Assembly: GCA_021811385.1 (NCBI GenBank)
Contig: JAJZPC010000026.1
Coordinates: forward strand, 1-32,141
Source: Deltaproteobacteria bacterium
Lineage (GTDB): Bacteria > Desulfobacterota > Desulfobulbia > Desulfobulbales > Desulfurivibrionaceae
DNA: 32,141 nucleotides
Direction of reading: 5' to 3'
Of the stretch, positions 30,699 through 32,141 are shown one piece after another. Below the pieces are notes generated by a model that did not search any database, had not been told where the DNA came from, and saw nothing but the letters and a program-made list of their open reading frames with translations. Made by a program: the position numbers and the translations under genes. Each line of letters begins with the position of its first letter. Within the stretch, counting starts at the first letter, position 1.

Positions 30699-30815
30699 AG
30701 CTGATTCTTTACCGAGATGTTGCGCCTGGTTGCGACGACTTACCGGCTACCCAACAAGCAGCACCCAGCAGGGATGGACACGACTCCAGGCATGGGTTTC
30801 ATACGGAGGATGACA

Positions 30816-31082
30816 ATGGCAAAAGCGGCTCCCAAGGATATGGCCAGCAAATATACCACCGGCCAGTTTCAGCAGATTATCGACAAATGCGAAGGTTGCG
30901 AGCGCATGGTTGAGATCGAGACAGCGAAATATTGCTCCACCTACGCCATGCCCGAAGCCAAGTGGCGTCTGGGGCTTTGCAACTTTGCAACCCACGTGAA
31001 GCCGGAGATCAGCGTGTCTACAATCAAGGTCAACCCCTTGAAGGCTTCAAAACGTGCCGCCACCAAGGGCAAGAAAAAATAA
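30816..31082 (+). CDS. PxxKW family cysteine-rich protein
   Basis: An 88-residue small protein. The ATG at 30816 follows a strong GGAGG site at 6 nt; upstream in-frame ATGs (30717, 30810) are less well placed. The core IDKCEGCERMVEIETAKYCS is followed by TYAMPEAKWRLGLCNFATHV, giving a CxxC pair, two further Cys and the P-x-x-K-W motif that names the family. The Cys set could bind one zinc ion or iron-sulfur cluster. The tail is Lys/Arg-rich (KASKRAATKGKKK), compatible with nucleic-acid or ribosome contact. From memory the family is found chiefly in sulfate-reducing and related Desulfobacterota; its function is unknown. It is a single-gene unit with its own promoter and terminator. Confidence 0.85.
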   Translation: MAKAAPKDMASKYTTGQFQQIIDKCEGCERMVEIETAKYCSTYAMPEAKWRLGLCNFATHVKPEISVSTIKVNPLKASKRAATKGKKK

Positions 31083-31100
31083 TTCCCTCCCACTGAACGC

Positions 31101-31136
31101 AAAAAGCCCTTCCGTCTTCGGAAGGGCTTTTTTTTT
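31101..31136 (+). terminator. Strong intrinsic terminator, probably bidirectional
   Basis: The 10-bp stem AGCCCTTCCG/CGGAAGGGCT with a TCTT loop is followed by nine T on the plus strand and preceded by five A. On the minus strand it therefore also ends with T residues and can terminate the convergent 174-residue gene. Confidence 0.93.
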
Positions 31137-31679: not shown

Positions 31680-32005
31680 TCTCAGCTTCCCCTGCTTTTA
31701 TGATCATGCTTCTCCGTCTTCCACATCCCGGGAGAGAACCTGGATTCTCGTCAACGTACCCATAAATATCCGTGGTTGCACCTCCCCTTCCTTACCCTCA
31801 CCAGCTATCTCCGGCAAGTTATTTCACTTTAACCGCATATTTTCATTGTCTCTCAACCAGCGCCACAAAACCGATCCCATCCTCGCCGAATGGCGACATC
31901 TTTCTATTCCTGCCATTCTGCTCCGGGACAAATACCTTGCCCCACGTTGAGCCCGAAACGACACGCCTGCTGTTAACCAATATTTTTTCGACAACCGCAC
32001 AAATA
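31680..32005. other. Non-coding region before the right-edge gene
   Basis: About 330 nt of lower GC with no supportable gene on either strand; the open frames present have low-complexity, non-protein-like composition. It must hold the promoter of the 174-residue gene (minus) and possibly the left end of a mobile element whose coding part starts at 32077. No target-site duplication or terminal repeat could be fixed because the other end lies outside the window. Confidence 0.45.
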
Positions 32006-32080
32006 CCATGCTGGCCATCTGATAATGTCGTAGCTTTGAAGGAGCACTTCAACCTACCAGATCAGAGGAGGCCAGCATGG
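32006..32080 (+). ncRNA. Nested long stem-loop enclosing the ribosome site of the right-edge gene
   Basis: Four stems nest in order: CCATGCTGGCC/GGCCAGCATGG (11 bp, 32006-32016 with 32070-32080), TCTGAT/ATCAGA, GTAG/CTAC and TTGAAG/CTTCAA closing a 5-nt loop (32042-32046). That is about 27 bp in 75 nt, with an asymmetric internal loop around 32024-32029. The outer stem takes in GGAGG and the ATG, so a transcript from outside would hide the start. It is either a translation-control hairpin of a transposase or part of a structured guide-like RNA. Confidence 0.6.
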
Positions 32081-32141
32081 CAAAATCAAGTGTATCAACT
32101 CTTCGGCAATTTGTAAGCGGTTTTGAATCACAATCCTTCTG
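32077..32141 (+). CDS. N-terminus of a probable IS110-family transposase (partial)
   Basis: Only 21 codons are present: MAKSSVSTLRQFVSGFESQS, then F and an incomplete codon beginning TG. The ATG has a strong ribosome site (GGAGG, 6 nt), here buried in the stem-loop. IS110-type DEDD transposases often open with a short helix followed by a stretch like F-W-V-G-I-D-V-H-K. The visible F-E-S-x-S-F followed by TG (Trp if TGG) matches that lead-in. The catalytic residues lie beyond the edge, so the assignment depends on a resemblance over about 20 residues. Confidence 0.45.
   Translation, partial: MAKSSVSTLRQFVSGFESQSF

What the first reader, a model, noticed from the sequence alone, without database searches (positions are those of the whole stretch)
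32006..32141. Structured RNA around the start of a possible IS110-type transposase
Seen: about 27 bp of nested stems in 75 nt, including an 11-bp perfect outer stem that covers the ribosome site and ATG, with an asymmetric internal loop. Known: IS110-group elements encode a guide (bridge) RNA in the non-coding left end upstream of the recombinase, and other insertion sequences hide their start codon in read-through transcripts. Inference: this may be the 3' part of a bridge-type RNA, a start-occluding hairpin, or both.
Basis: partly seen in the sequence, partly recalled or inferred. Interest (0 to 1): 0.72.

Follow-up and report, generated by a model that had tools for sequence, protein, structure and literature searches.

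The report
IS-end hairpin clamping transposase start codon
The right edge of this contig holds the left tip of an IS110/IS1111-family jumping gene whose end repeat folds onto and hides its own transposase start codon, probably so that stray transcripts from neighbouring genes cannot switch the element on; the same fold, with matched sequence changes, recurs in relatives from other bacterial groups.

Summary
The hairpin is real: 32006-32080, 29 pairs, -38.9 kcal/mol, z -6.9. The downstream gene is an IS110-family transposase. A second copy in the same genome reads on into GIDVHK, and the full-length relative carries PF01548 and PF02371.

The element starts at about 31999-32001. Its first inverted repeat, CCATGCTGGCC, pairs perfectly with the start region GGCCAGCATGG. 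The same architecture, AAATACCATG...CATGG, occurs in four further lineages, including an alphaproteobacterial plasmid. Four of 11 outer pairs change on both sides and none on one side only.

The left end is only about 76 nt and the long non-coding region lies downstream of the gene in the relatives. This is IS1111-like architecture, where the guide RNA is expected at the right end. The bridge-RNA reading is therefore not supported; the start-occlusion reading is.

Occlusion of an IS110-family transposase start by 5'-UTR structure has been shown experimentally for ISPpu9. What is new is that the terminal inverted repeat itself is the clamp. Two solo hairpins in other genomes look like remnants. 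The right end of this IS was not found, and no expression was tested. Verdict: a new variant of a known kind.

The parts
31999..32005 (+). Left terminal extension ACAAATA of the insertion sequence; the element begins at about 31999-32001
   Evidence: Independent copies share sequence from A[C/T]AAATACC onward and differ upstream
32006..32016 (+). 5' arm CCATGCTGGCC, the left sub-terminal inverted repeat (IRL/STIR)
   Evidence: Position 7 nt from the end as in IS1111 elements (PMC11187229); inverted match to the start arm and to the outer arm of the solo copies
32018..32067 (+). Inner stem-loops of the hairpin (TCTGAT... TTGAAG/CTTCAA ... ATCAGA), 18 pairs
   Evidence: Fold; nearly the same in G023 and the two solo copies
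32064..32071 (+). Shine-Dalgarno stretch AGAGGAGG
   Evidence: Sequence shows it directly; spacing 5-6 nt to the ATG
32070..32080 (+). 3' arm GGCCAGCATGG, holds the transposase start codon
   Evidence: Perfect 11-bp pairing with 32006-32016; covaries with it in relatives
32077..32141 (+). Start of the IS110-family transposase gene (MAKSSVSTLRQFVSGFESQSF...), cut by the contig end
   Evidence: Second copy continues to WLGIDVHKQSYSF; 53% identical over 49 residues to a full-length IS110 transposase

Best explanation
This is the left end of an IS110-family insertion sequence of IS1111-like build. Its left sub-terminal inverted repeat (CCATGCTGGCC) is an exact inverted copy of the transposase start region (GGCCAGCATGG). 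Any transcript entering from the chromosome carries both arms, folds the 29-pair hairpin, and buries the ATG and part of the Shine-Dalgarno sequence, so the transposase is hardly translated. A transcript that starts inside the left repeat, as one from the promoter known to form at the joined ends of the excised circle in ISEc11 might, lacks part of the 5' arm and leaves the start more open. Shown here: the element, its left end, the fold, its conservation with compensatory change, and the computed effect of shortening the transcript. Inferred: repression of translation, and escape of circle-derived transcripts.
For: Fold and shuffles; second copy with GIDVHK; PF01548, PF02371 and a GL-P----SG motif in the relative P0001. 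The same layout, AAATACCATG...CATGG, occurs in G371, G588, G398, G023 and a Tritonibacter plasmid. Pattern search of 395 genomes: 8 hits, 0 in the reversed control; each hit whose downstream sequence was read leads into a transposase reading frame. Pair counts: 94.9% of cells paired against 19-37% when slid, 10 two-sided changes, covariation score above all 500 shuffles. Opening energy of the start region falls from about 25 to about 10 kcal/mol when the 5' end moves from the flank to 10-14 nt inside the left repeat. Precedent: weakening the start-burying 5'-UTR of ISPpu9 raised expression 26-fold (PMC8450116); ISEc11 circles form a promoter at the junction (PMC11187229).
Against: No expression data. 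The conserved pairs vary only as Watson-Crick pairs, never G-U, which would also fit a DNA-level inverted repeat. Accessibility of the ATG itself rises clearly for shortened transcripts only in some members and positions (0.95 in the window at 4 nt into the repeat, but 0.2-0.4 at 8-14 nt), and in Tritonibacter the opening cost falls little. No sigma-70-like promoter was seen in the integrated left end, and the right end of this IS is missing, so its circle junction cannot be read. Most other IS110 transposases tested have no such clamp.
Confidence: 0.7

Rival explanations
1. The inverted repeat at the start codon works as DNA: a third copy of the sub-terminal repeat, bound by the recombinase-guide complex, which would repress the gene directly or act as a decoy end. 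The RNA hairpin would be a by-product.
For: All ten changed cells are Watson-Crick on both sides with no G-U intermediates. The solo copy in G010 ends 2-3 nt after GGCCAGCATGG, where an IS1111 right end would stop, so the start arm resembles the right repeat.
Against: Beyond the repeat, the inner stems also fold well (18 further pairs) and each distant relative has its own inner hairpin, which a pure DNA repeat does not need. Few independent lineages, so absence of G-U is weak evidence.
Confidence: 0.18
2. The structure is the 3' part of a bridge or seek RNA encoded in the left end.
For: IS110-group elements carry the bridge RNA in the left end (PMC11208160); the fold has an asymmetric internal loop.
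Against: Left end only about 76 nt, with the guide expected in the right end for short-left, long-right elements; long conserved non-coding region after the gene in relatives; near-identical left ends sit next to unlike left flanks; no Rfam match.
Confidence: 0.04
3. The hairpin is an independent palindromic repeat (REP-like) that was the target, and the transposon inserted into it.
For: Two genomes hold the hairpin alone as a perfect 17-18-bp palindrome without a transposase.
Against: Only one solo copy in each of those genomes and none found in G000 or G023. The hairpin is always the first feature of the element, covaries with the start codon, and recurs in unrelated genomes with intact transposases.
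Confidence: 0.05

Closest known systems
ISPpu9 (IS110 family, Pseudomonas putida KT2440), PMC8450116
   Same: IS110-family transposase whose mRNA 5' region folds over the ribosome site and lowers translation, shown with reporter fusions.
   Different: ISPpu9 has a 244-nt 5'-UTR, an antisense RNA that opens it, and sits in REP sequences. Here the left end is about 76 nt and the terminal inverted repeat itself is the anti-start arm; an antisense RNA was not looked for.
IS1111 group (ISEc11, IS4321, ISKpn4), PMC11187229 and PMC11208160
   Same: DEDD transposase with GL-P----SG motif in the relative, short left end, long non-coding region after the gene, inverted repeat about 7 nt from the left end.
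   Different: IS4321 has no start-codon clamp. In this group the repeat is described as an end feature; pairing of it with the start codon is not mentioned in the passages read.
Read-through protection of IS10, IS50 and IS200 transposase genes (own knowledge)
   Same: A hairpin in transcripts entering from outside hides the transposase start.
   Different: Unrelated transposases; in this case the arm belongs to the sub-terminal repeat of an element of an RNA-guided family.

Membership tests
IS110 family (IS110 plus IS1111) | N-terminal DEDD domain PF01548 | tested here: met
   Own second copy gives GIDVHK at the right place; relative P0001 hits PF01548 at 4e-10. The window's own protein is cut at 21 codons.
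IS110 family (IS110 plus IS1111) | C-terminal PF02371 domain with the catalytic Ser | tested here: met
   Met in the full-length relative P0001 (PF02371, 7.6e-24; GLAPVVRQSG); not testable in the window's own cut copy.
IS1111 group | Sub-terminal inverted repeats of 7-17 bp near both ends | tested here: inconclusive
   Left repeat clear. Right end of this IS not found. Tritonibacter has a candidate right repeat with 8 of 10 matches; the G010 solo copy ends as an IS1111 right end would.
IS1111 group | Longer non-coding region, with the guide RNA, downstream of the gene | tested here: met
   Position of the longer region only: about 130 nt or more after the gene in L066 and L070 against 70-78 nt before it, with a shared motif GGTACTTGG...CGAATARGAAA. 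That it makes a guide RNA was not tested. Not testable for the window copy.
Bridge RNA encoded in the left end (IS110 group, IS621-like) | Long left end with an RNA whose loops match target and donor | tested here: not met
   Left end is about 76 nt; left flanks of independent copies show almost no common sequence; no Rfam match. Loop matching to the right flank could not be tested.
Start-occluding 5' structure (ISPpu9-like control) | Weakening the structure raises translation | not testable with these tools
   Needs reporter fusions; only fold, covariation and opening energies computed.

The most novel reading that the evidence does not exclude
In this subgroup of RNA-guided IS elements the sub-terminal inverted repeat has a second job: it is the anti-start arm of a state sensor. 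While the element is integrated, read-through mRNA always contains the full repeat and is silent; only RNA started at the circle junction, inside the repeat, is translated, so transposase is made from the excised form.
Probability: 0.3. Interest if true: 0.55.

Novelty: new variant of a known kind. Interest (0 to 1): 0.42.

Why it matters
IS110 and IS1111 recombinases are being developed as RNA-guided DNA-writing tools, yet how their expression is kept low and tied to the excised circle is poorly known. A terminal repeat that also clamps the start codon links element ends, excision and translation in a 76-nt module. It gives a clean, small test case and a warning that constructs carrying the natural left end may silence their own recombinase.

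Tried and rejected
Bridge RNA in the left end: rejected on length, architecture and unlike flanks. REP-like target: rejected because solo copies are single. GGCCAGCATGG as a genome-wide repeat: about 30 copies per genome, but the sites outside the known element that were read look like ordinary coding sequence. Right end of this IS: not found by conserved motif, by the repeat itself, or in viral contigs and plasmids. Empty site for the Tritonibacter element: the left boundary agrees with Leisingera plasmids, but the right flank is not shared. Clamp as a general IS110 feature: rejected. Of the other plasmid IS110 starts tested, only one lineage (L118/L126) shows a 13-15-bp clamp clearly beyond chance, L071 a borderline 9-bp one, and IS4321 none. 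Viral pattern hits L051-L058 lead mainly into one family of similar proteins with no hairpin of this kind, and are unrelated.

Full report
Observation. The last 136 bases of the window hold a strong hairpin, 32006-32080, 29 pairs and -38.9 kcal/mol, far below shuffled sequence (z -6.88, 0 of 200). Its outer 11-bp stem pairs CCATGCTGGCC (32006-32016) with GGCCAGCATGG (32070-32080), which includes the ATG at 32077-32079. The window is the whole contig C47, which ends inside the gene.

What follows it. A second copy in the same genome, 98% identical, runs on for 82 bases and encodes ...FWLGIDVHKQSYSFALRRADQRCFTWKGP, the DEDD signature of IS110 transposases. That copy has a TAA at codon 7 and is cut by its own contig end. 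A relative in another genome of the phylum, G371, 53% identical over the 49 residues available, is full length (360 aa), with PF01548 and PF02371 and the motif GLAPVVRQSG.

Where the element starts. Eight copies in a related MAG (SKS1.bin83, G023), the two copies here and others share sequence from A[C/T]AAATACC onward and differ before it. The element thus begins at about 31999-32001. The left repeat starts about 7 nt in, as described for IS1111 elements (PMC11187229). The left end is about 76 nt.

Conservation. The layout AAATACCATG...CATGG recurs in G371 (three variants), G588, G398 and a Tritonibacter plasmid whose transposase is 44% identical to the G371 protein. Each has its own repeat sequence (GCTGGCC, GTTGG, GTCGGT, GTTGGTA, GCTGGA), matched at the start codon. 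A pattern for this layout gave 8 places in 395 genomes and none for the reversed pattern; each place whose downstream sequence was read leads into a transposase reading frame. On a nine-sequence alignment 94.9% of cells are paired (19-37% when the partner is slid), 4 of 11 pairs change on both sides, none on one side only, and the covariation score is above all 500 shuffles. There are only about five independent lineages, so the shuffle count should not be read as a probability.

Is it general? No. Of the other plasmid IS110 starts tested, one lineage (L118/L126) has a 13-15-bp clamp of its own, while ISSso6, IS4321 and others do not exceed chance for stems covering the ATG. ISSso6 does have a 9-bp upstream match to its Shine-Dalgarno region that stops at the AT of the ATG. 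IS110 transposases of the phylum found by PF01548 mostly lack a clamp as well (the script recognised the gene in only some of those loci).

Mechanism. With the whole left end present, opening the start region costs 25 kcal/mol in the window copy and 12-26 in relatives. Moving the 5' end of the RNA 10-14 nt into the left repeat lowers this to about 10 in the window and 2-15 in relatives. ISEc11, an IS1111 element, forms a promoter at the joined ends of its circle (PMC11187229), and IS110 circles likewise rebuild a promoter across the RE-LE junction (PMC11208160). I therefore propose, as inference, that read-through mRNA is silent and circle-derived mRNA is less so. ISPpu9 shows directly that such a 5' fold represses an IS110-family transposase: weakening it raised the reporter 26-fold (PMC8450116).

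Not a bridge RNA. In the two relatives where the end of the gene could be read, the long non-coding region lies downstream, at least about 130 nt, with a shared motif GGTACTTGG...CGAATARGAAA that also occurs, with one extra A, in G588. Bridge or seek RNAs of elements with this build lie in the right end (PMC11208160; PMC11187229). Near-identical left ends sit beside unlike left flanks.

Solo hairpins. Two genomes hold the hairpin without a transposase: G010:C17 (L018:1096-1184) and a Desulfuromonadales MAG (L044, from 395). In both the palindrome is extended outward and stays perfect, with ATA/TAT in one and ATG/CAT in the other. Each genome has one copy. In G010 the right flank, compared with sister genomes, starts 2-3 nt after GGCCAGCATGG, where an IS1111 right end would stop. 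The simplest reading is a deletion between the start arm and an identical right repeat, leaving both ends. This predicts the unseen right end of the present IS; it is not shown.

Limits. The right end of this IS was not recovered in any assembly. Function is inferred from fold, conservation and precedent. Lack of G-U pairs leaves room for a DNA-level role of the repeat.

Noticed in passing
L018:1096-1184 and L044 from 395: Solo copies of the hairpin with perfect 17-18-bp palindromic arms and no transposase; in G010 it sits where sister genomes have an intrinsic terminator.
   Followed up: partly
L003:1746-1766 (G000:C96): The second copy of the IS in this genome has a TAA at codon 7 of the transposase, so it is either dead or a consensus error at a repeat edge.
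   Followed up: no
L066 ~1870-1920, L070 ~2605-2665, L069 (minus) ~490-430: Conserved motif GGTACTTGG...CGAATARGAAA with a variable stretch between, downstream of the transposase; a candidate guide-RNA region of this IS subgroup, without an Rfam match in L066 and L069.
   Followed up: partly
L118:890-1000 and L126:887-995: A second IS110 lineage (Sulfitobacter, Thioclava) with a 13-15-bp stem over the start codon (CCGCATGTCTTTT / GGAAGACATGCGG), apparently independent.
   Followed up: partly
G000:C37:4907-5320 (L155): A different IS110 transposase (GVDVAK) in the same genome, without the N-terminal stretch of the present one.
   Followed up: no
window 31096-31135: Strong intrinsic-terminator-like sequence AAAAAGCCCTTCCGTCTTCGGAAGGGCTTTTTTTTT after the DUF6811 gene (30717-31082).
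   Followed up: no
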